Below, one piece after another: positions 5,107-15,752 of a stretch of DNA of 64,000 nt. Source of the stretch: Acidimicrobiia bacterium (GTDB lineage Bacteria; Acidobacteriota; Vicinamibacteria; Vicinamibacterales; CAVVIG01); NCBI GenBank assembly GCA_016871175.1, contig VFZL01000021.1, positions 1-64,000 of the forward strand, read 5' to 3'. Below the pieces are notes generated by a model that saw only the letters and a program-made list of their open reading frames with translations, did no database searches and was not told the DNA's origin. How positions within the stretch are numbered: the first letter of the stretch is position 1; every line of letters begins with the position of its first letter. Position numbers and translations under genes: made by a program.

Positions 5107-8100
5107 ATGCCTCAGTGTCGTATCCCTGGGTTCGTTCTCGCAATCACTTTCTGGCTGCTGCCACTCCTGGCAGCGGCTCAGCAAACGGCTGGTATCTCGG
5201 GTGTGGTGAGAGACAGCTCCGGCGCCGTGCTTCCCGGGGTGACGGTCGAAGCCGCAAGCCCAGCTCTGCTCGAAAAGGTCCGAACGGCCGTCAGCGACGG
5301 CGAGGGCCGCTACACCGTCATCGAGATCCCGCCGGGCACCTACACAGTCACGTTCACACTCACCGGCTTCGGCACGTTCACGCGCGAAGGCGTGACCTTG
5401 GCGTCGGGCTTCACCGCGACTGTGGATGCGACGATGCGCGTCGGGGCGCTCGAGGAGTCCATTACGGTGAGCGGCGCGGCGCCGCTCGTCGACACGCAGA
5501 ACGTGCGGAAGCAGCTCGTCGCGAGCGCCGAGCTCCTGTCCGCGCTGCCCACGAGCTCCAAACAAATCTATACACTCGTGACGCTGACGCCGGGCTACGC
5601 GGGCGTTCCAGACGTCGGCGGGCAGTACGCCTCCGAGGCGGGCGCCTTTCACGGCAAGCGCGGCACGCGAGCGCTGTTCAACGGGATGGGCGTCGAGAAC
5701 AGCTCGGGCAACAGCAGCTATCAGATCAACGCCGCGACGGTTGAGGAGATGGTGCTGCAGACCAGCGGCATCTCCGCAGAAGTGAACGCCGACGGTCCGA
5801 TCATGAACATCATCCCGAAGTCCGGGAGCAACACGTTCCAGACGATCTTCAACGGCCTGTATAGCAACCACGCGATGGAGAGCGACAACCTCTCCGACGA
5901 GCTCCGGGGCCGCGGCCTGAAATCGGCGAATCAGCGCGTCAAGATCTTCGACGAAGCCGCGAGCCTCGGTGGACCGATCAAGAGAGACAAGATCTGGTTC
6001 TTTGGCGCGTACCGCACATGGGGGATGGCGAAGTGGTTCTCCGGCGTGTACTACAACCGAACACAGGATCAGTCGAGGTCGGCACCTGGCGCGCCGCTGC
6101 GCGTCGTGCCGTACACGCCGTGGCTGGATCGACCGCTCGACACCTTCTCGGCCCGCTGGGAACACTACGATTCAGCGAGCGGGCGCGTGACGTGGCAGGC
6201 CGCCCCGAAGCACAAGATCGACTTCTTCATCGATCGTCAGTACGGCTGCAACTGCGGTTCGATCGGCGCAGCCGATACGGTGGAGACCTACATCGGCTCG
6301 TACAAGTTCGAGCCAAACCGGTTCATTCAAGTGACCTACAACTCGCCGCTGACGCCAAAGCTCCTGATCGAGGCCGGCTACGGCGCGTCGATTTCGCAGT
6401 GGAACCAGACCTACGGCCCGAACGTGACACCTGATATCGCGAGCGTGACCGACGTCGCGCTCGGGGTGCAGTACGGGTCATCCGCCACGTACCGGGGCCG
6501 GCCGAATTTCACGAACCGGAAGACGCAGCGTGCCTCGTTGACCTACGTCACCGGCGGACACAACTTCAAGACGGGCATCCAGACCGAACAGCTCGCCACC
6601 GACCAGTACCTCTTCGCAAACGGCAACATGAGCTACACCTTCCGCGCGGGCGTCCCCATCGCCCTCACGCAGCGCGCGACGCCGTTCAATCAGGAGGACA
6701 GAGGGAATGACTACGGGGCCTTCGTTCAGGATCAGTGGAGGATTAGGCGGCTGACGCTGAATCTGGGCGTACGCTACGACCACTACATGGGGTGGGTGCC
6801 AGAGCAGAACACGCCGGGCGAGACGGCGAGTCTTTTCGATCGGAGCTATCCGGGCGTCCGAGCGGCGTCGAGCTTCACGAATCAGTGGATCGGTCCGCGG
6901 AGGTTCGCGAAGGTGACCGGGATTCCGAGCTGGCACGATATCAACCCTCGCGTGGGGTTCTCCTACGACCTGTTCGGCACCGGTCGGACGGCGATTAAGG
7001 CGTCGGCCGGGCGCTACGTCGCCAAGACGAACGTGGACGTCCCGCAGGCGCTGAACCCGATCACGACGTCGGTGAATGCCGCCACGCGCGCGTGGAACGA
7101 CACGTTCTTTGGAGCAGGCGATCCGCGCAGTGGGAACTTCTCGCCAGACTGCGATCTTGGCAACTTCCTCGCCAACGGCGAGTGCGGTGCCTTGAACAAC
7201 CAGAATTTCGGCAGGTCCAACCCGAACGCCACAACTTGGTCAGACGCGGTGCGGAAGGGCTGGGGCGTCCGGGACAACAACTGGGACTACTCTGCCGAGA
7301 TCCAGCATGAGGTTCGCCGAGGCCTGTCGACGACGTTCGGCTACTACCGCAACACCGGTGGATACTTCCGCAACACGGACAGCATCAACCGCGTGACGGA
7401 TAACGTCCTGGTGACCGGTGCCGACTTCGATACCTACTGCGTGACGGCGCCGAACGACCCGCGTTTGCCCAACGGCGGCGGCTATCAGGTCTGTGGGATG
7501 GCCGATATCAAGCCGGGGAGGTTCGGACAGGTTCTGAACGAAGTGAAAGCGACCTCCGACTTCGGCAAGAACACTCGGTACAACGACTTCTTCACGATTT
7601 CGATCGACGGGCGGTTTCGCCGAGGGGCGCGCCTGGGCGGAGGATTCGACACGGGGCGGTCGGTGAACGACACCTGCTTCAACGTTGACGCGCCCGGCTA
7701 CTTCAACTTCCCGGCGAATGGATTCGGCGCGCTCACGTTCGGTCCTCAGACGGGCGTGACCATCGATGGCAAGTCGGTGTGCCGCATCGTGACGCCGTTC
7801 AAGGCGCAGACACAAGTCAAACTGAACGGGTCGCTGCCGCTCAAGAGCGGGTTCGTGTTCAGCGGCGTCTACCAGGACCTGTCTGGTACGCCTGTAGAGG
7901 CGGTCTGGGCCGCACCAACCGCAGCCATCGCCCCGTCGCTCGGTCGCAACCTGGCAGGCGGTGCGCTCACGGCTAACGTGCCGCTGTTGGCCCCGAACAC
8001 GATTTTCGAGGGGCGCATCCGCCGGCTCGATCTCCGGCTGACGAAGTTCTTTCAGCTGACGCGCCGGGTGAGGCTGCAGGCGAACCTGGATGCGTACAAC

Positions 8101-8217
8101 GCCCTGAACTCGAGCGCGATCCAGAGCATCATCCGCGCCTACGGGACGAGCTGGAGACAGCCGAACACGATCCTGGACGCGCGCATTCTCCAGGTCAGCG
8201 GGCAGTTGACGTTCTAG
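5107..8217 (+). CDS. TonB-dependent receptor, Oar-like, with carboxypeptidase regulatory domain
   Basis: An intact 1036-residue outer-membrane receptor. A signal peptide (about residues 1-25, ending AAAQQ) precedes a carboxypeptidase-regulatory-like beta-sandwich (ISGVVRDSSGAVLPGVTV to LEESITVSG, about 28-120), a plug domain and a long beta-barrel with repeated paired strands. The C-terminus ends in an aromatic residue (VSGQLTF), the usual BAM-recognition signal. Such proteins import ligands too large for porins using TonB energy; in Acidobacteriota the substrates are mostly unknown, often proposed to be plant or microbial polymers. A G-rich Shine-Dalgarno-like run lies just before the ATG. 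The OsmC-like gene follows 89 bp downstream. Confidence 0.93.
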   Translation: MPQCRIPGFVLAITFWLLPLLAAAQQTAGISGVVRDSSGAVLPGVTVEAASPALLEKVRTAVSDGEGRYTVIEIPPGTYTVTFTLTGFGTFTREGVTLASGFTATVDATMRVGALEESITVSGAAPLVDTQNVRKQLVASAELLSALPTSSKQIYTLVTLTPGYAGVPDVGGQYASEAGAFHGKRGTRALFNGMGVENSSGNSSYQINAATVEEMVLQTSGISAEVNADGPIMNIIPKSGSNTFQTIFNGLYSNHAMESDNLSDELRGRGLKSANQRVKIFDEAASLGGPIKRDKIWFFGAYRTWGMAKWFSGVYYNRTQDQSRSAPGAPLRVVPYTPWLDRPLDTFSARWEHYDSASGRVTWQAAPKHKIDFFIDRQYGCNCGSIGAADTVETYIGSYKFEPNRFIQVTYNSPLTPKLLIEAGYGASISQWNQTYGPNVTPDIASVTDVALGVQYGSSATYRGRPNFTNRKTQRASLTYVTGGHNFKTGIQTEQLATDQYLFANGNMSYTFRAGVPIALTQRATPFNQEDRGNDYGAFVQDQWRIRRLTLNLGVRYDHYMGWVPEQNTPGETASLFDRSYPGVRAASSFTNQWIGPRRFAKVTGIPSWHDINPRVGFSYDLFGTGRTAIKASAGRYVAKTNVDVPQALNPITTSVNAATRAWNDTFFGAGDPRSGNFSPDCDLGNFLANGECGALNNQNFGRSNPNATTWSDAVRKGWGVRDNNWDYSAEIQHEVRRGLSTTFGYYRNTGGYFRNTDSINRVTDNVLVTGADFDTYCVTAPNDPRLPNGGGYQVCGMADIKPGRFGQVLNEVKATSDFGKNTRYNDFFTISIDGRFRRGARLGGGFDTGRSVNDTCFNVDAPGYFNFPANGFGALTFGPQTGVTIDGKSVCRIVTPFKAQTQVKLNGSLPLKSGFVFSGVYQDLSGTPVEAVWAAPTAAIAPSLGRNLAGGALTANVPLLAPNTIFEGRIRRLDLRLTKFFQLTRRVRLQANLDAYNALNSSAIQSIIRAYGTSWRQPNTILDARILQVSGQLTF

Positions 8218-8306
8218 CTGCCACGAGTCGATCGATGCCAAGGTGTCGTCTGGACGGGAGGCGCTGATTCACTGGGAGATATCGTCCGCCAGAGGAGTGG
8301 CTGCAC

Positions 8307-8798
8307 ATGGGGAACGTGGTCTACACGTCGCGCGTTCGGATCACACGCCAACGTGGGCCGCTGCGCACGGCCGAACTGCCTGGTGAGTCTTCGCCTGTCG
8401 CCTTCGGCGTCCACGGTGCGATCGCCGAGCACTATAAGGTCGACCCTGAAGCCATCGGCGGCGCACATGCTGCAACCATCGACTACGTGATCGCCGCAAC
8501 CGCCGGTTGAATGCTCGGGACCTTTGGAGGCGCGCTGGAGGCGCGTCACATCGATGCAAGTGGCGGCCGGCTGACAGGCGAGGTGACAGGCGAAGTCGAA
8601 ACTGAGGAGAACGTCCTCGTCGTCAAGCGGATCCACGTCGCTCTGCGGTTGGCGGCGTCCGAAGACCTGCGTGAAACCGTGGAACGAGTCCACGGCTTCT
8701 ACGCGATGAAGTGTCCCCTTTACCGAACCCTTCGGAGCGCCATCGAACTCACGTCGTCCTACGAGTTGGTGGCGCCGATCGGCGGTGTCGCGGGGTAA
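8307..8798 (+). CDS. OsmC-family peroxiredoxin-like protein, candidate selenoprotein (TGA at catalytic position)
   Basis: Read through the in-frame TGA at 8508-8510, the gene encodes 163 residues with normal OsmC layout: VAFGVHGAIAEHYKV, GGAHAATIDYVIAATAG, position 68 = TGA, MLGTFGGALEARHID, then FYAMKCPLYRTL with the resolving Cys136. In the family the residue after ATAG is the peroxidatic cysteine (Cys59 in E. coli OsmC), which reduces organic hydroperoxides, so TGA replaces exactly that codon. A hairpin at 8529-8547 fits a bacterial SECIS. AGGAG at 8293-8297 precedes ATG 8307. OsmC-like proteins are, as I recall, among selenoprotein families reported from marine metagenomes. The alternative is a TGC-to-TGA change by mutation or error, since other genes here carry stops. 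The family is secure; the selenocysteine reading is inference. Confidence 0.8.
8529..8547 (+). promoter_or_regulatory. Candidate bacterial SECIS hairpin
   Basis: Arm GGCGCGC (8529-8535) pairs with GCGCGTC (8541-8547) in seven pairs including one G-U. The 5-nt loop UGGAG has G in its second position. The loop begins 25 nt after the TGA, inside the 16-37 nt window I recall for bacterial SECIS elements. GC-rich hairpins are common in this DNA, so a chance fold is possible. Confidence 0.5.
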
Positions 8799-8863: not shown

Positions 8864-11734
8864 TCACCACGACACCTGCAACCCGAGCCGGGGCAGACGG
8901 CCCGGGATGATCGACGTCGGTGTGCCGAAGGCCGCGCCGAAGGTCGCCACTTGCGTGATGACCGTGCTCGCGTTCAGCACGTTGAACACGGTCAGATCCG
9001 CCACCAGACGGAGCCCTCGAAGCTGAAACGTTCGCTTGGCGCTGAGATCGATCTGGGTCCAGCGGGGTAGGAACTGGGAGTTCGGCGCAATCAACGGCAC
9101 GGTGACCGGCTGCGTGCGACCGCCAGGAAAGAGCGATGCCGGCACGACCCAGTTCATCTCCATCCAATCGCCGAGATAGCTTCTCAGGGCGATGCTCCCC
9201 GTGAAGTTATAGGGGAGGCCCGGCACGGTGCTGAGGACCTTGAACGACGACAGGTAGGGCGATGGCGCCGTGCGGCCCAGCTCTTGGAAGAGCTGACCGC
9301 GCTGATCGCAAAAGCGGAACTGATTCGGATCGTTGGTGTCGCAGTTGACATCGACGCGCCGCTCGGCGCTCCAACCACCGAGCACTGTCCCCCCGCGCGG
9401 CAGCCGACCCGTGACCACCACGTGGTACCCCTCGTAGACGCGCTCGTTCAGATCGGAGGCCGTGTCCAACAAGTCCACTTGACCCTGCTTCGACCGATCC
9501 AGATTGTAGATGGTGATCGGCTGTCCATCGCGTGGGCTGGGCACCTGGAAGGACGCGAAGTCCCCCACGTCGGCGAGCTGGTTTCTCGAGGTCAGGCGGT
9601 TCCGGTACGGCCGCCGCTGGTAAAAGAGGCTGGCCGCGATGCCCTGCCAGAACTCGTGCTGGACGCTCGCAGTGTACTCGATGTTGTAGCCGCGCGGCGC
9701 ATCCGCGTCGAAGCGTCGGAAGGTCCGGAGGCCATAGTTCCGGTTGTTGCTCGGGCCGATCTCGTTGTCCTGCGCGATGTCGTCGCCATTGGTGGGGAGA
9801 TCGCGACCCTGTCGATCGCGGTCGTTCCAGTCGCGCCGGTCCGCTGGTGGCGCGGCTCCCGCAGACGAGGCGAGCGGCGCGGTGGGATCGTAGTTGCGGA
9901 CACCCTCCGGATTGCCGAGCGCCATGGCGGCGACGTACTTGCCGACGCTCGCTTTGATGGCGGTCCGCCCGTTGCCGAAGAGGTCATACGCGATGCCCAG
10001 CCGCGGCACGACGTCCTTGAAGTTGTGCAGGTTCTGGACGCCCGCAAACGAGCGATCCGGCAAGAAGCGCCCGGCCGCTGAGAACGTCGGATCGATCGAG
10101 GCGCGGAAGTGCTCGAAGCGAGCGCCCGCGTTGACCGTGAGGCGACCGATCGTCCACGCGTCCTGCGCGTAGACACCCAGTTCGGCGTTGATACTGTTGC
10201 GCGACTCCGTCGGCGAGTTCAGCACGTCCACGAACGTCGGGACGCCGTTCACGTAGATCTGGTACAGGTCGCCGTTCCATCGCGCCGTGTCGACGATGTT
10301 CCCCCAGCCGTGTTGAACGCCGACCTTGATGTTGTGCGACCCCGTCACGTACGACAGAGCCCCAGACAGGTTGGCCATTGTCGGCATGAAGGCGCCGACA
10401 CCGGCCTGGCCGGCGGCCCAATTCACGCCGGTGCCGATGTCCTGCCGGCGCGCCTGCGCGTACCAATCTGCTGTCCCGCGCGCGGGCTCGCCGAAGAGGT
10501 ACCGCTTCGTGTACCCCATCTGATTCCAGGAATATCCGGCCTCGAGCAGAAGCCGGTTGGTCAGTGGCGCGGACCACTTGGCGATCCCGAGGTAGTACAT
10601 CGAGTCCGGGCGATAGTTCGAGGCCGGCTCGTTGCTCCAACCGACCGGATCGAAGCGGCCGGTGTAGTCGGCGTGGAGGCTGATCTTGTGCTTGGCAGCG
10701 GCCTGCCACGTCGTGCGCCCGGTGATGTTGGTGATGTGGCCGCCTGTTACGCGCGGGATACCGTCTCTGATGATGCTTCCGGCCGTCAGCGCTTGATGCT
10801 CTTGATAACGATAGGACCCGAAGATCCACAGCTTGTCGCGCGAAATCGGACCGCTGAACCACGGGTTGAGATCGAAGGAGTGGTACAGCTTGTTTTGTGC
10901 GCGCAAGTTGCGAGCGATGAGCTCCTCCGTGAGGTTGTTGGCCTGCCATGCGCCATCGGAGACGTTGAAGATGGCACCACCGATGAACGTGTTGCCGCCG
11001 TCGCGGCCGATCAGATTGACGCGCACGCCGCCTCTCGAGATGTCCGCTCCCAAGGCCGTGGACTGATACGTTGTCTCCTGAATCATCGCGTCGTTGTAGG
11101 GCTGGAACGTGAAGGCGTGCAGCGTGGTCACGAGGACGCCGTCGATCTGCTGCGTGGACTCCCACGACGTCCCGCCCTGGGTCGCCAGTGTGGGCGGAAC
11201 GGAGACGTCGCCGACCATCGGTCGGTTCACGCCTCCACCCGTGACGGCTGGCAGTAGGACGCCAACGCTCCGATAGCCACGCCCGGTGGGCAGCGCGTCA
11301 ATCACTTCGCGGGTCAGCACTTCGGTGCGCTGCGTCGTGTGGACATCGACCGCAGGGGCCTGTCCGGACACCGTGACGGTTTCTTCGACTGCGCCTACCC
11401 GGAGCTCGACGTTCACCGTGGCCGTGAAGCCGGAGGGCAGATTCAAGCGGTCCCGCACGACGGTGGTGAATCCGGGAAGCGTGAACGTGACGGAGTACAC
11501 GCCTGGCCTGAGGTCGACGACGGTGTACCGTCCCTGATCGTCTGTGAGCGCCGCTCGGACTTTCTCAATGAGCGCAGGGCTCGAGGCCTCGACGGTCACG
11601 CCGGGGAGCACGGCGCCCGAGCTGTCAGTTACCAGACCGGCAATGGCGCTTTGAGCGGAAGCCGATGACGGAAGCGCGAGGAATAGGAAGACGAACCAAC
11701 CGAGGAGCGCCGGCGAACCCAATCTGCGGAACAT
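8864..11734 (-). CDS. TonB-dependent receptor, Oar-like, with carboxypeptidase regulatory domain
   Basis: A 956-residue receptor from ATG 11734. GGAGG about 5 nt upstream decides this start over longer in-frame extensions to 11959, which would add 75 residues before the signal peptide. Order: signal peptide (LGWFVFLFLALPSSASAQ), regulatory domain (IAGLVTDSSGAVLPGVTV to VEETVTVSG), plug (DALPTGRGYRSVGVLLP), then barrel ending LGLQVSW. It is close in the N-terminal domain to the other two receptors in this window but diverges in plug and barrel, as expected for different ligands. It is convergent with the OsmC-like gene and divergent from the kinase. Confidence 0.93.
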   Translation of the reverse strand: MFRRLGSPALLGWFVFLFLALPSSASAQSAIAGLVTDSSGAVLPGVTVEASSPALIEKVRAALTDDQGRYTVVDLRPGVYSVTFTLPGFTTVVRDRLNLPSGFTATVNVELRVGAVEETVTVSGQAPAVDVHTTQRTEVLTREVIDALPTGRGYRSVGVLLPAVTGGGVNRPMVGDVSVPPTLATQGGTSWESTQQIDGVLVTTLHAFTFQPYNDAMIQETTYQSTALGADISRGGVRVNLIGRDGGNTFIGGAIFNVSDGAWQANNLTEELIARNLRAQNKLYHSFDLNPWFSGPISRDKLWIFGSYRYQEHQALTAGSIIRDGIPRVTGGHITNITGRTTWQAAAKHKISLHADYTGRFDPVGWSNEPASNYRPDSMYYLGIAKWSAPLTNRLLLEAGYSWNQMGYTKRYLFGEPARGTADWYAQARRQDIGTGVNWAAGQAGVGAFMPTMANLSGALSYVTGSHNIKVGVQHGWGNIVDTARWNGDLYQIYVNGVPTFVDVLNSPTESRNSINAELGVYAQDAWTIGRLTVNAGARFEHFRASIDPTFSAAGRFLPDRSFAGVQNLHNFKDVVPRLGIAYDLFGNGRTAIKASVGKYVAAMALGNPEGVRNYDPTAPLASSAGAAPPADRRDWNDRDRQGRDLPTNGDDIAQDNEIGPSNNRNYGLRTFRRFDADAPRGYNIEYTASVQHEFWQGIAASLFYQRRPYRNRLTSRNQLADVGDFASFQVPSPRDGQPITIYNLDRSKQGQVDLLDTASDLNERVYEGYHVVVTGRLPRGGTVLGGWSAERRVDVNCDTNDPNQFRFCDQRGQLFQELGRTAPSPYLSSFKVLSTVPGLPYNFTGSIALRSYLGDWMEMNWVVPASLFPGGRTQPVTVPLIAPNSQFLPRWTQIDLSAKRTFQLRGLRLVADLTVFNVLNASTVITQVATFGAAFGTPTSIIPGRLPRLGLQVSW

Positions 11735-11774
11735 AGGACCTCCGAAACCCTGTAACTCGTCCGTCCGGTGCGGG

Positions 11775-11803
11775 AGCATTGCATGCGACTCAGCACGTGT
11801 CAA
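11775..11803 (-). promoter_or_regulatory. Candidate promoter of the second TonB receptor
   Basis: On the minus strand TTGACA (11803-11798) is followed after 17 bp by AATGCT (11780-11775), preceded by TGC as in an extended -10. The predicted start is near 11768, about 34 nt before the ATG at 11734. The -10 is weak. Confidence 0.4.
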
Positions 11804-12121
11804 GGCCGGTGTTCGCGTCTCCGGGCCCTTAGCCAGAAGCTCTTTCGTGCGAAGGAGGATGCCAGCGACCGCTCCGCAGCGCAGTCCACAGGACCGCGAC
11901 AGAGTCTGACAGAGAGGGCGATCGCTCTGGGCTCGTCCGAGACGACACGCGATCGGCACGCCACTCGTGTGCTGTGCTGAACTGAGATGACGAGACGCGC
12001 GCTGAGTGACGTCCGAATCACCGACGTGACACCTTACGAAGCGGCGTCAATGTTCGAGAGAAGCGCTCGGGGACCAGTGGTGATCCACGAGTTCCGCGTG
12101 GCCTGCGGCCGCACGAAGCCG
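11804..12121. other. Intergenic region between divergent receptor and kinase genes
   Basis: About 450 bp separate the two start codons (11735-12184), with promoters near each end. The middle holds one copy of the GTCTGACAGA 10-mer (11904-11913). The kinase frame stays open upstream to 11987, but those residues show no kinase similarity and lie before the predicted promoter. I see no further gene or RNA. Confidence 0.5.
11904..11913 (+). repeat. GTCTGACAGA 10-mer, copy 4
   Basis: Exact match to the copies at 1103, 4431 and 4442; here it lies between the divergent receptor and kinase promoters. Confidence 0.5.
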
Positions 12122-12184: not shown

Positions 12185-14463
12185 GTGTCCTCCTCTAACC
12201 CATCACGCATCGGCCGCTTCGAGGTCATCAGGCGCCTCGGGTCAGGCGGGATGGGCGTGCTGTACCTGGCTCGCGACCCATTGCTCGAGCGAGACGTCGC
12301 CATCAAGGTGCTGTCGCACCTCAGCCAGGAGCTACGCGTCAGATTTTCGCGGGAGGCCCGTGCCGCTGCGCGATTGAAGCACCCGAATGTGGTCATTCTC
12401 TTCGACGTTGGCGAGGAGGCGGGGCAGCCGTTCCTGGCCATGGAGTACGTCGAAGGCGAGACGCTGGCGGATGCCATCCGCCGCCGTGCCCCATTTGACG
12501 TGTGGCTCAAGGTGCAGCTCATCGTCGAACTGTGCGATGGACTCTCGTATGCCCATCGCATGGGGGTGGCCCATCGGGACATCAAGCCGTCGAATCTGAT
12601 GCTGAGTGCGGACGGCTCGCTCAAGATCCTCGATTTCGGCCTCGCGCGGGCGTCATCGGAAATGACATCCACCGAGCTGACGATGCCGGGCACCGTCATG
12701 GGCACGCCGCACTACATGTCTCCGGAGCAGATCGAGGGGTTGCCGACAGACGTGCGGAGCGACGTCTTCTCGGTGGGCCTGGTCTCCTATGAGCTGCTCG
12801 CGTACCGGAAGGCCTATCCCGGCGACAGCGCGCCCATCGTTTTACACAAGATCCTGACATCCGACCCACCGCCGCTGCGCGAGCACGTCCCCACCCTCGA
12901 TCGTGAGTTGGAGCGCGTCATTCACACCGCGATTCGACGGGTTCCCGACAGCGGTATCAGACCCTCGCTGCGATGCTCGAGGACCTGGGTCGGGTCATCG
13001 CACAGATGAACAGGCCGCGCGGTAGCGACCAGTCCACGATCATTGTCGGCTCACCGCCGCCGGTCGAACCGCCGTCGCCGAAGGTCATCGAGACCTCGTC
13101 CGGGCGACCGGGTGGGTCATCAGACGTGTCGCCGCCTAATGCAGTACCCGGTCGTCCCACAGAGACGCCGCCCGCTACGCCGCGTTTCGGTTCCGGCTTG
13201 GACGCCATCGCCCGCCGTCGCGCGGCCCAGATCGCCCAGTACCTCGAGGAGGCGTCGCGCGAGCTGGAGGCCGGCCGATTCGAGGCCGCGATCGAGCACT
13301 GTTAGCGGGCGGCCGGTCTGGACCCGCAGCATGCTGAGATGCTCGCGCTGCTCGAGCGCGCGCATGAGGCCGCCGCCGACAGTCGCGTCCGCTCGTGGTT
13401 GTCGGATGCCGAGGGGCATCTCTCCCGAGGGGTGGTCACACAGGCTGAGCTGCTCGTTGAGCAGGCGCGCCAGCTACGGCCCGAGCTCGAGGAGATCCGA
13501 AGGCTCGAGTCGGCGATCGTGCAGCGCCGGCGCGACCAGGAGCGTTCGCGACAGCTCAAGTCCGCCATTGTCCGCGCGCGCAGCGGTCTTCGCGAACGGG
13601 CATTCGACGTGGCACTCCAGGCTGCGAAAGACGCGCTGGCGGTAGACCCGGATAGCGCGGAGGCGTCGGAGCTCGAGCGCGCGGCCATGAGCGCAATCGA
13701 GGAGCAACGCACGCGGGAACGCCATGACCGTGACGCAGACTCGGTCATCCAAGAGGCCACGCAGTGGGCCCACGATGGTGACGGTGCCGCCGCGCTCCAT
13801 CTCTTGGAGTCGTTCACGCCTCCCCATCCAAGGGTTACTGCGGCGCTAGCCGCGCTGCGCGAGGAGCTTGCGAAGACGACGACCGCGCTGGACACGACGG
13901 CGGTCGGAGACACCGACGTGGCCTCAGCGCCCCAGCCGGCACCGCCGCAGTGGGGTGCTACGCCGCCCGTGAATCGCTCGGCTGCGGTGCCCGGACCCGA
14001 ATCGGAGTCCCGTAGGATCTCGAGCGCGAAACCGACGGTTTGGTATGTCGCGGTGGCCGCAGAGCTGCTGCTGCTCGCGGTCACGGTCTCCTGGCGACTG
14101 TGGTCTGGGCGACAAGAGAGCCAGGTGGCCGGCACGGCAAACACGAGCCCTTCCGGGGGCCCGGGCGTCCCCACTCCAGGAAATGCCGTTGGCGCGGAGC
14201 GACACCGTCTCGAGATCAACGCCGTGCCCTGGGTGTCGGTGCGGATTCAATCCACTCGCGGCTCAGACGAAACGCTAGAGCGCACGACCCCGTTTGCCGT
14301 ATCCCTGCCGGCGGGAGAGTATCGACTGGAGTTCCGCCATCCAGCCTTTCCGTCCGTGGATCGCTCCGTCACCGTCGGTTCAGGTGGCGCCGCGCCGGTT
14401 CTGGTGTCATTTCCAGGCGTCGACATTGACCGGATCGTCGCCGACGTGCTAGGCGAGGAATAA
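12185..14463 (+). pseudogene. Membrane Ser/Thr protein kinase with TPR-like region, frameshifted and amber-interrupted
   Basis: A Pkn2/Hanks-type kinase. From GTG 12185 it shows the Gly loop GSGGMG (19-24), VAIK (Lys41), HRDIKPSN (130-137), DFG (150-152) and the GTPHYMSPEQ activation segment. Near 12952 one base is missing (RRVPDSG should continue RYQTLAAMLEDLGRV), moving the frame. A TAG at 13303-13305 follows EAAIEHC. Beyond it, helical repeats, a membrane segment (VAVAAELLLLAVTVSW, near 14050-14100) and a PEGA-like beta domain run to 14463. The intact protein would be about 759 residues: cytoplasmic kinase and repeats, external C-terminus. The partner gene starts 12 bp later. If the lesions are real, only the catalytic domain would be made. 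Confidence 0.8.
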
Positions 14464-14475
14464 TCGGTGCGCGGG

Positions 14476-15752
14476 ATGACGTTCTCCCGGAGCCTCGTGT
14501 TCGTCTTGCTCGTTGCCGCGCTGGCAGCCAACGCGCAGGCGCAGGACTTGTTCTACGATGCCTACGAGCGCGGGCGCGCGGCCTTTGACGCGGGTGATCT
14601 GACGCTCGCCCGCCAGATGTTCGAGCGGGCGCTCGCGCTGGACGGACGGTAGAGCTGTCAGAAGCGCTTCAGCGGCATGACGTTCAGTCCGTATTTCCCT
14701 GAGTACTACCTCGCGCGGATCAGCTTTCGAGAAAAGCGGTTCGATCTGGCGATCCAGTACTTCGACCGAATGGAGAAGGCTGGCTTGATCAGATCAGGCG
14801 ATCCGGAATACCCCCACGTTGACGAGCGAACGGCAGGCGGCCCAGCAGGCGCGGACGACGCAAGTTGCGGGGGGGCCGACGACGTCTCCTTCGGGGGCGC
14901 CTCCTCCTCAGGCGACACCTACGTCCCCGCCGGTCGCGCCTTCGCCCGAACCGCCACGTGAGGCCACGCAAGCGCGACCGCAGGAGCCGGTGCCCGGCCC
15001 ATCGACGCCGTGGGTGGTTGCGCCCCCGCCCCCGAAGACGCCGACCGCGGAGCCGCCGACCATCGTCGCCAGGCGGGATCCTCCGGCTCAGCGTGCGGAT
15101 CCCCCTGGCACCTCCCGAACGCCCCCCCTCAGTGCTGGTCGCACCGCCGCCGGTAACGTCGGCGCCGCCCAGCTCCGCGGATGCCGAGCGGCTCGCGTCT
15201 GACGTGAATCGAAGTCTTGAGGCGCGCGAGTTCGCAAAGGCGTACAGCGATCTACAACGGCTTCAAACCATGCCTGGAGGCGCCGCTGCAGTGAGGGCCC
15301 CGCAGGCGCGCCTGCAGGCCGCGCTGACGGAGGAAGGGAATCCCCAGCTCCGCGACGGCAACTTGAGGGCGACGACGACGGCCGTCGACCTCCTGGTTCG
15401 CGTGGCCCCCAAAGGCGACGAGACGCGGCGTCTGCAACAGGCGCTGAACGACCGACGGGCCCAAGTGTCAACCGAACGTGCCGCGTTTGCCGATCTGCTT
15501 CGGGGCGAATATCGAAAGGTGTTGGAATCGGCGGCGCCGCTCGTCGACGCCGGCCGAGCCAGCCCTCGTCCCCTGTTCTACGCGGCCTGCAGTCGAGCCG
15601 CTCTATCGCTGACCGCGGCGCCGGACGGGCAAGCCGCGCTGGTCGACGACGCCCGTTGCCTTTTCGCCCGCGCGACGGCGCAGGGGGCGTCGTTCGCGCG
15701 CGACGAAACGCATATCTCGCCGGCTATTCTGTCGGTCCTCAAGCCGCGCTGA
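14476..15752 (+). pseudogene. Secreted or lipid-free TPR-like partner of the kinase, multiply interrupted
   Basis: The gene opens with a signal peptide (LVFVLLVAALAANAQAQD) and TPR-like helices (YERGRAAFDAGDLTLARQMFERALAL). A TAG at 14650-14652 interrupts a clearly continuing frame (SCQKRF, then YFPEYYLARISF). Two one-base frameshifts follow, near a C5 run at about 14811 and at C-rich runs near 15101-15128, around a Pro/Thr-rich linker. The last frame encodes a helical domain (DAERLASDVNRSLEAREFAKAY, to ARDETHISPAILSVLKPR at 15752). GTG 14467 is an alternative start. It follows the kinase gene by 12 bp and probably formed an operon with it. The length of an intact product would be about 425 residues. 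Function is not known. Confidence 0.65.

What the first reader, a model, noticed from the sequence alone, without database searches (positions are those of the whole stretch)
8307..8798. OsmC-family gene with TGA at the peroxidatic cysteine and a SECIS-like hairpin: candidate selenoprotein
Seen: both halves of an OsmC protein are in one frame, separated only by TGA (8508-8510) at exactly the position where the family has its catalytic Cys (ATAG-x-MLGTF). The second redox Cys is intact at residue 136. A 7-bp hairpin (8529-8547) has a UGGAG loop starting 25 nt after the TGA with G in position two, fitting the bacterial SECIS rules as I recall them. Established: OsmC reduces hydroperoxides through two cysteines, and OsmC-like selenoproteins have been reported from metagenomes. 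Inference: position 68 is selenocysteine. Caution: five other genes here have TAA/TAG interruptions explainable by single C-to-A or G-to-T changes, as would be TGC to TGA.
Basis: partly seen in the sequence, partly recalled or inferred. Interest (0 to 1): 0.85.

Follow-up and report, generated by a model that had tools for sequence, protein, structure and literature searches.

The report
Selenium-containing OsmC peroxidase gene in Acidobacteriota
The apparent stop codon in this bacterial antioxidant gene is almost certainly a code word for selenocysteine, the selenium amino acid, because its relatives share the same codon followed by the same RNA hairpin, and the genome carries the machinery to read it.

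Summary
TGA 8508-8510 interrupts an otherwise open OsmC-family frame (8307-8798) at the family's first redox Cys; Cys136 is intact. Own genome: SelA, SelB and SelD in one cluster and a tRNA-Sec with anticodon TCA. In the order, 49 of 49 matches (48 of 162 genomes) hold an in-frame TGA. In a phylum sample 32 of 33 do, and the 33rd misses the site. In 54 aligned genes the TGA column is invariant; the hairpin at +19..+37 shows compensatory changes, an invariant CTG codon and raised synonymous constraint. In seven comparisons selection after the TGA is as strong as before it. Among 76 OsmC-family matches in 27 genomes, 10 have a TGA, none a TAA or TAG. OsmC-like selenoproteins are already in print from marine metagenomes, so the kind is known. 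New relative to what I could read: an Acidobacteriota-wide clade with no Cys form seen, and a possible separate Sec gain in another OsmC subfamily. No experiment shows selenium insertion; substrate and reductant are inferred.

The parts
8307..8798 (+). OsmC-family selenoprotein gene, 163 residues with Sec at 68, stop TAA 8796-8798
   Evidence: Pfam PF02566 E 1.9e-10; AlphaFold2 model (Cys in place of Sec) pLDDT 92.5 and Foldseek hits to solved OsmC/Ohr proteins
8508..8510 (+). UGA codon read as selenocysteine (Sec68) at the peroxidatic position of OsmC/Ohr
   Evidence: Invariant TGA column in 54 of 54 distinct aligned genes; an in-frame TGA in 49 of 49 matches in the order; aligns with the first Cys of solved OsmC proteins
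8529..8547 (+). bacterial SECIS hairpin inside the coding sequence: 7 bp stem (8529-8535 with 8541-8547), loop UGGAG 8536-8540; an eighth U-G pair leaves a GGA triloop in the minimum-energy fold
   Evidence: Covariation, synonymous constraint, geometry within the bSECIS limits quoted in PMC13188914, fold
8712..8714 (+). codon of Cys136, the conserved second (resolving) cysteine, in a Cys-Pro pair
   Evidence: C136 and P137 invariant in the 25-row alignment A1; aligns with the second Cys of 4mh4 and 1ukk
8291..8297 (+). AGAGGAG, probable ribosome-binding site 9 nt before the ATG
   Evidence: Read from the sequence; inference

Best explanation
The gene encodes an OsmC/Ohr-fold protein in which the peroxidatic Cys is selenocysteine. 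The ribosome meets UGA at codon 68; the hairpin 19 to 37 nt downstream binds SelB carrying Sec-tRNA(Sec), and Sec is inserted instead of termination (inferred from the established bacterial mechanism plus the parts found). The selenolate of Sec68 would attack a hydroperoxide, probably an organic one; Cys136 would resolve the selenenic acid to a selenenylsulfide; a lipoylated or other thiol reductant would regenerate it (inferred by analogy with Ohr). Shown: conserved UGA at the catalytic site, selection on the protein after it, selected RNA hairpin, Sec machinery in the genome, OsmC fold prediction. Not shown: Sec insertion, enzyme activity, substrate, reductant. The confidence given is for Sec at codon 68; the peroxidase step I hold at about 0.7.
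For: Machinery: SelA C29:39764-40861; SelD 378.7 bits, with one in-frame TGA; tRNA-Sec 74.6 bits, anticodon TCA, on C15 (a second match over the cut-off, 51 bits on C4, is called tRNA-Ser by ARAGORN); SelB TIGR00475 300.8 bits (cut-off 242.25) with Pfam SelB winged-helix and beta-barrel domains, between SelA and SelD. Conservation: an in-frame TGA in 9 of 9 matches in 27 family genomes, 49 of 49 in 162 order genomes, 32 of 33 in 396 phylum genomes, the other a fragment missing the site. In 54 distinct genes the TGA column is invariant. Of the 32 genes, 12 end in TGA, so TGA also serves as a real stop here (4 end in TAA, 16 in TAG). dN/dS after the TGA is 0.10-0.20, before it 0.10-0.21 (seven comparisons, one before-value saturated). 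Hairpin: pair +24x+32 is GC in 27 and AU in 23 of 54 genes, +23x+33 CG in 48 and UA in 4, +19x+37 GC in 31 and CG in 10; both-sided changes from one standard pair to another fall on five tree branches. In 21 of the 54 sequences 98.0% of cells pair against 90.7% shuffled, covariation score 0.318 against 0.187, 0 of 500 shuffles as high. CTG at the hairpin tip is invariant, 54 of 54, and mean same-codon excess is 0.329 in hairpin codons against 0.034 (sd 0.082) elsewhere. Control: 76 OsmC-family matches in 27 genomes, 10 with TGA, 0 with TAA/TAG. SelA is in 44 of 48 carriers against 82 of 114 non-carriers in the order, and in 29 of 32 against 223 of 364 in the phylum sample (not corrected for relatedness).
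Against: No experiment. Six distinct carriers lack a SelA match at E up to 1e-20: G029 (57% complete), G119 (62%), G120 (81%) and G101 (93%) in the order; G236 (75%), G444 (88%) and again G101 in the phylum sample. G101 is not easily blamed on incompleteness. Two of five measures do not exceed shuffles (pairs with a change on both sides, 322 of 500 shuffles as high; pair types, 498 of 500). Five of 54 genes (L041, L058, L069, L070, L072) do not form the standard stem of 6 or more bp around the loop, and the outermost pair +19x+37 is unpaired in 13 of 54; most changes at that pair are one-sided, and one of the five both-sided branches (L069, L070) lies in genes that have lost the stem. 3 of 54 fold weaker than -7.5 kcal/mol over +17..+40. 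Single-sequence folding is not significant.
Confidence: 0.97

Rival explanations
1. A Cys codon was changed to TGA by mutation, sequencing error or DNA damage; the gene is broken.
For: TGC to TGA is a single change, and the window does hold apparent TAG interruptions at 13303 and 14650. A lone TGA of this sort probably exists in another OsmC gene, G004:C108.
Against: An in-frame TGA is in every match covering the site across the order and the phylum sample, in one column in 54 of 54 aligned genes; selection after it is unrelaxed; no TAA/TAG occurs among 76 OsmC matches.
Confidence: 0.01
2. UGA is recoded as another amino acid (for example Trp) or read through without Sec.
For: A TGA-containing frame alone cannot tell which residue is inserted.
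Against: 12 of 32 of these genes use TGA as their own final stop; full Sec machinery with tRNA-Sec(TCA) is present; the codon sits at the catalytic Cys site; the hairpin is conserved and covarying.
Confidence: 0.01
3. It is a selenoprotein but not a peroxidase: a YhfA-like OsmC protein with another redox task. (Compatible with Sec at codon 68; it competes only with the peroxidase step.)
For: Solved structures match only weakly by sequence (best E 0.003); PMC5962072 (passages) says the family includes proteins such as YhfA of unknown activity; the Ohr Arg/Glu pair could not be assigned here.
Against: Both redox positions are kept, and R20 and D59 are invariant in 25 rows, which would suit an active-site network (inference).
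Confidence: 0.25

Closest known systems
OsmC-like selenoprotein family of marine metagenomes (COG1765/PF02566, motif printed as UxxT; PMC1088965, PMC2398784, PMC9312934, PMC13188914, passages seen)
   Same: OsmC-family protein with Sec in place of a redox Cys, predicted from an in-frame UGA; PMC1088965 also shows a predicted bacterial SECIS for it (legend).
   Different: Here Thr is at +4 from Sec (U-x-x-G-T), not +3 as the printed motif says; the host is Acidobacteriota; a second Cys about 68 residues later is invariant in 25 rows. The published sequences (3, then 5; representatives MBR72571.1, MCS5647933.1) could not be fetched, so their relation is open.
Ohr/OsmC Cys-based peroxidases (for example 1ukk, 4mh4, 6ebg, E. 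coli OsmC 1qwi)
   Same: Predicted fold (Foldseek E down to 6.7e-8, TM-score by target about 0.6-0.8) and, for 4mh4 and 1ukk, aligned positions of both redox residues.
   Different: Sec instead of the first Cys; only 10-18% identity to the 50 listed structures; Arg/Glu network not assigned.
E. coli-type bacterial SECIS/SelB decoding
   Same: Hairpin in the coding sequence directly after UGA, G in the first two loop positions, loop 25 nt from the UGA, SelB and tRNA-Sec in the genome.
   Different: The stem sequence was not compared with E. coli's; the element here is conserved in one OsmC clade of a phylum.

Membership tests
Bacterial selenoproteins | in-frame UGA at a redox-active Cys position, conserved in orthologues | tested here: met
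   same column in 54 of 54 aligned genes; an in-frame TGA in 49 of 49 order matches
Bacterial selenoproteins | SECIS hairpin: loop 3-9 nt with G in first two positions, stem 4-16 bp, 16-37 nt from UGA, MFE at most -7.5 kcal/mol (limits as quoted in PMC13188914) | tested here: met
   window: loop 25 nt after the UGA, 7-8 bp; 51 of 54 genes at or below -7.5 over +17..+40; stem of at least 6 bp within the loop and spacing limits in 53 of 54
Bacterial selenoproteins | SelA, SelB, SelD and tRNA-Sec in the genome | tested here: met
Bacterial selenoproteins | selenium actually inserted | not testable with these tools
   needs 75Se labelling or mass spectrometry
OsmC/Ohr family (PF02566) | profile match over curated cut-off and OsmC fold | tested here: met
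   41.4 bits against 27.5; model pLDDT 92.5; 63 PDB hits at E up to 0.001, the 50 listed named OsmC/Ohr-type or putative, hypothetical or untitled proteins
OsmC/Ohr family (PF02566) | two redox residues, peroxidatic and resolving | tested here: met
   Sec68 and Cys136 align with the two Cys of 4mh4 and 1ukk; second is Cys in 25 of 25 rows
OsmC/Ohr family (PF02566) | active-site Arg and Glu as in Ohr (Arg19, Glu51, Cys61 of XfOhr, PMC5962072 passages) | tested here: inconclusive
   R20 and D59 invariant in 25 rows, but the acidic residue is 9, not 10, residues before the redox site; no coordinates to compare
OsmC/Ohr family (PF02566) | peroxidase activity | not testable with these tools
   needs purified selenoprotein
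Sargasso/GOS OsmC-like selenoproteins | motif UxxT | tested here: not met
   Thr is at +4 in 54 of 54 genes; how the authors counted could not be checked
Sargasso/GOS OsmC-like selenoproteins | sequence relatedness to MBR72571.1 or MCS5647933.1 | not testable with these tools
   sequences not held

The most novel reading that the evidence does not exclude
This is an obligately Sec-containing OsmC clade, spread over the Acidobacteriota, in which no Cys form survives, so its substrate or environment makes selenium indispensable; and OsmC proteins in this phylum have gained Sec more than once (a second subfamily in genome G023 shows a lone TGA with a hairpin that its nearest Cys relative lacks).
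Probability: 0.5. Interest if true: 0.6.

Novelty: new member of a known kind. Interest (0 to 1): 0.45.

Why it matters
Gene finders that read this UGA as a stop would split such genes (the window's ORF list, at a minimum of 80 residues, shows only the 95-residue tail), hiding a likely antioxidant enzyme carried by 48 of 162 genomes of one order. A clade where Sec never reverts to Cys is a good test case for why selenium is kept, and comparing it with the Cys-type OsmC proteins of the same genome (three in this one) would measure what selenium buys a peroxidase of a non-thioredoxin fold.

Tried and rejected
Rejected: assembly error or pseudogene; stop-codon reassignment; simple read-through (reasons under rivals). 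Conserved gene neighbourhood: ORFs within about 1.5 kb of 15 loci (of 54; two of them, L046 and L047, with longer flanks) show no shared neighbour by eye, so context gives no functional hint; larger stretches fetched for five loci were not analysed. No relatives found in plasmids at E up to 1e-3, phages at E up to 0.01 or viral contigs. The genome-contig scan gave two relatives only, both titled Acidobacteria or Acidobacteriaceae. Single-sequence folding gave no signal. L082 (G004:C108) was considered as a further Sec-OsmC and set aside: of three Cys relatives examined, L088 keeps the hairpin strongly (-19.9 kcal/mol), L085 in weaker form, and L087 folds otherwise; G004 has no SelA match; and it is the only one of 5 matches with a stop. 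The order-wide Pfam OsmC search printed only its best matches, none with a stop; the rest, including the window gene, were not printed, so it is not used as a count. One clade member, G023:C299, is missing from the Pfam list at E up to 1e-5. NCBIfam gave no family for the window protein.

Full report
Observation. The frame 8307-8798 (+) is as described: 163 codons, one TGA at 8508-8510, and a hairpin at 8529-8547 whose UGGAG loop starts 25 nt after the TGA. Read through, the protein matches Pfam OsmC at 41.4 bits, over the cut-off of 27.5. A predicted structure, with Cys in place of Sec (pLDDT 92.5), finds solved OsmC/Ohr proteins as its best matches. A profile of 25 relatives aligns position 68 with the first and position 136 with the second redox Cys of 4mh4 and 1ukk, at weak E-values (0.0068 and 0.012).

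Machinery. The window's genome (4.44 Mb, 97% complete) has SelA, SelD, SelB and a tRNA-Sec with anticodon TCA. SelA, SelB and SelD lie in a row on one strand of contig C29. SelD itself has an in-frame TGA, and the next gene, an AhpC/TSA-family peroxiredoxin (Pfam 113.8 bits; NCBIfam models below their cut-offs), has a TGA in the context T-A-G-U, which fits the TXXU motif listed for peroxiredoxin selenoproteins in PMC1088965. Both look like further selenoproteins.

Conservation. Matches to the protein: 9 in 27 family genomes, 49 in 48 of 162 order genomes, 33 in 32 of 396 genomes drawn from the phylum (profile search, E at most 1e-10). Every match that covers the site has an in-frame TGA; the one without a stop (G147:C206) covers only profile positions 88-153 at a contig start. 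I held loci for 30 of the 49 order matches and 30 of the 33 phylum matches, plus two from genome contigs; these 62 loci gave 54 distinct genes, one of them (L024) cut at its start, and in all 54 the TGA stands in one column. For matches without a held locus the TGA's exact place was not checked. Two order matches were flagged with two TGAs; in the held copies (L029, L032) the second is the final stop. No Cys form was seen at these thresholds; remoter relatives were not examined.

Selection. Comparing the window gene with seven close relatives, dN/dS is 0.10-0.20 after the TGA and 0.10-0.21 before it (one before-value was saturated). The stretch after the TGA is therefore under selection as protein.

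RNA hairpin. Over 54 genes, 49 form at least 6 consecutive pairs around the loop and five do not. Pairs change in a compensatory way: +24x+32 GC in 27, AU in 23, GU in 2, unpaired in 2; +23x+33 CG in 48, UA in 4, unpaired in 2; +19x+37 GC in 31, CG in 10, unpaired in 13. On a protein tree built without the hairpin codons, changes on both sides from one standard pair to another fall on five branches, one of them in the two genes that lost the stem; one-sided changes also occur, most at +19x+37. The pair tool on 21 of the 54 sequences gives a covariation score of 0.318 against 0.187 shuffled and 0.000-0.097 for slid partners, though two of its five measures do not exceed shuffles. The Leu codon at the tip is CTG in 54 of 54, where the expected chance of two genes sharing the codon is 0.30. 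A hairpin of at least 7 bp within the bSECIS loop and spacing limits follows the TGA in 52 of 54 genes, against 6.2% of 5,479 other codons and 4 of 53 real stops. Folding the window sequence alone is not significant.

Controls. In 27 family genomes 76 OsmC-family matches include 10 with one TGA and none with TAA or TAG. Eight of the ten are this clade (compare). The other two are single cases. G023:C186: 36 of 37 order matches have no stop and the nearest Cys relative lacks the hairpin, in a genome with SelA. G004:C108: 4 of 5 matches have no stop, two of three Cys relatives examined keep the hairpin in some form, and no SelA was found. So a TGA at the Cys site plus a hairpin is not proof in one gene; conservation and covariation are what settle the window gene.

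Co-occurrence. SelA is found in 44 of 48 carriers and 82 of 114 others in the order (Fisher p 0.006), and in 29 of 32 against 223 of 364 in the phylum sample (p 0.0005). The phylum carriers were read off the listing by eye, and relatedness is not corrected for. Six distinct carriers lack a SelA match; five are 57-88% complete, one (G101) is 93%.

How it most likely works. SelB bound to the hairpin brings Sec-tRNA to UGA68. In Ohr enzymes the peroxidatic Cys is oxidised to sulfenic acid, attacked by the resolving Cys, and the disulfide is reduced by a lipoylated protein (PMC5962072, passages read). By analogy Sec68 and Cys136 would do the same through a selenenylsulfide. Invariant R20 and D59 may serve as the active-site pair, but I could not test this.

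Known work. OsmC-like selenoproteins were reported from the Sargasso Sea (3 sequences, UxxT; PMC1088965, passages) and the Global Ocean Sampling set (5; PMC2398784, passage), and are listed in two reviews (PMC9312934, PMC13188914, passages). A 2006 survey counts 3 selenoprotein families and 4 selenoproteins in Acidobacteria and holds no word beginning 'Osm' (PMC1794560, passages); a 2025 method paper lists one acidobacterial genome with 3 known and no new selenoprotein genes and likewise no 'Osm' (PMC12013277, passage). The paper searches 'OsmC + selenoprotein', 'OsmC + selenocysteine', 'selenoprotein + Acidobacteri + selenocysteine' and 'selenoproteins + Acidobacteriota + UGA' listed no title or abstract start on an acidobacterial OsmC selenoprotein, in an open-access library only; most listed papers were not opened. 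The kind is known; this clade looks like a new member, possibly a separate subfamily.

Noticed in passing
L002 5890-10862 (own genome C29), minus strand: selA-selB-selD-peroxiredoxin cluster in which both SelD and the AhpC/TSA-family peroxiredoxin have an in-frame TGA at the expected redox position: two more likely selenoproteins.
   Followed up: partly
L081 350-787 (G023:C186): A different OsmC subfamily with TGA at the Cys site and hairpin UCGCGC-UGUAC-GCGCGA; 36 of 37 order matches have no stop and the nearest Cys relative lacks the hairpin: a likely recent Cys-to-Sec change.
   Followed up: partly
L082 360-698 (G004:C108): Lone TGA at the Cys site of another OsmC type in a genome without a SelA match; two of three Cys relatives examined keep the hairpin in some form, so probably a mutation or error.
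   Followed up: partly
window 12900-14960: Near a protein-kinase-like ORF, an apparent frameshift around 12.9-13.0 kb and in-frame TAG codons at 13303 and 14650 inside TPR-like frames (judged by eye); 14461 TAA, and 54698 and 63165 TAG, look like ordinary gene ends.
   Followed up: partly
codons next to the Sec TGA in 54 genes: The base after the TGA is C (33) or A (21), never G or T, and the codon before it is GGT in 34 of 54; could reflect reading context or only the amino acids needed there.
   Followed up: no
L069, L070 (G253, G212): Two closely related genes keep the TGA and the CTGG tip but have lost the standard stem; another hairpin folds at -11.5 kcal/mol, perhaps a shifted SECIS.
   Followed up: no
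window 5107-8217 (+) and 8864-11959 (-): The gene sits between two large ORFs that look like TonB-dependent, Oar-like outer-membrane receptors (recalled resemblance, no family search run); the relatives looked at do not share this context by eye.
   Followed up: partly
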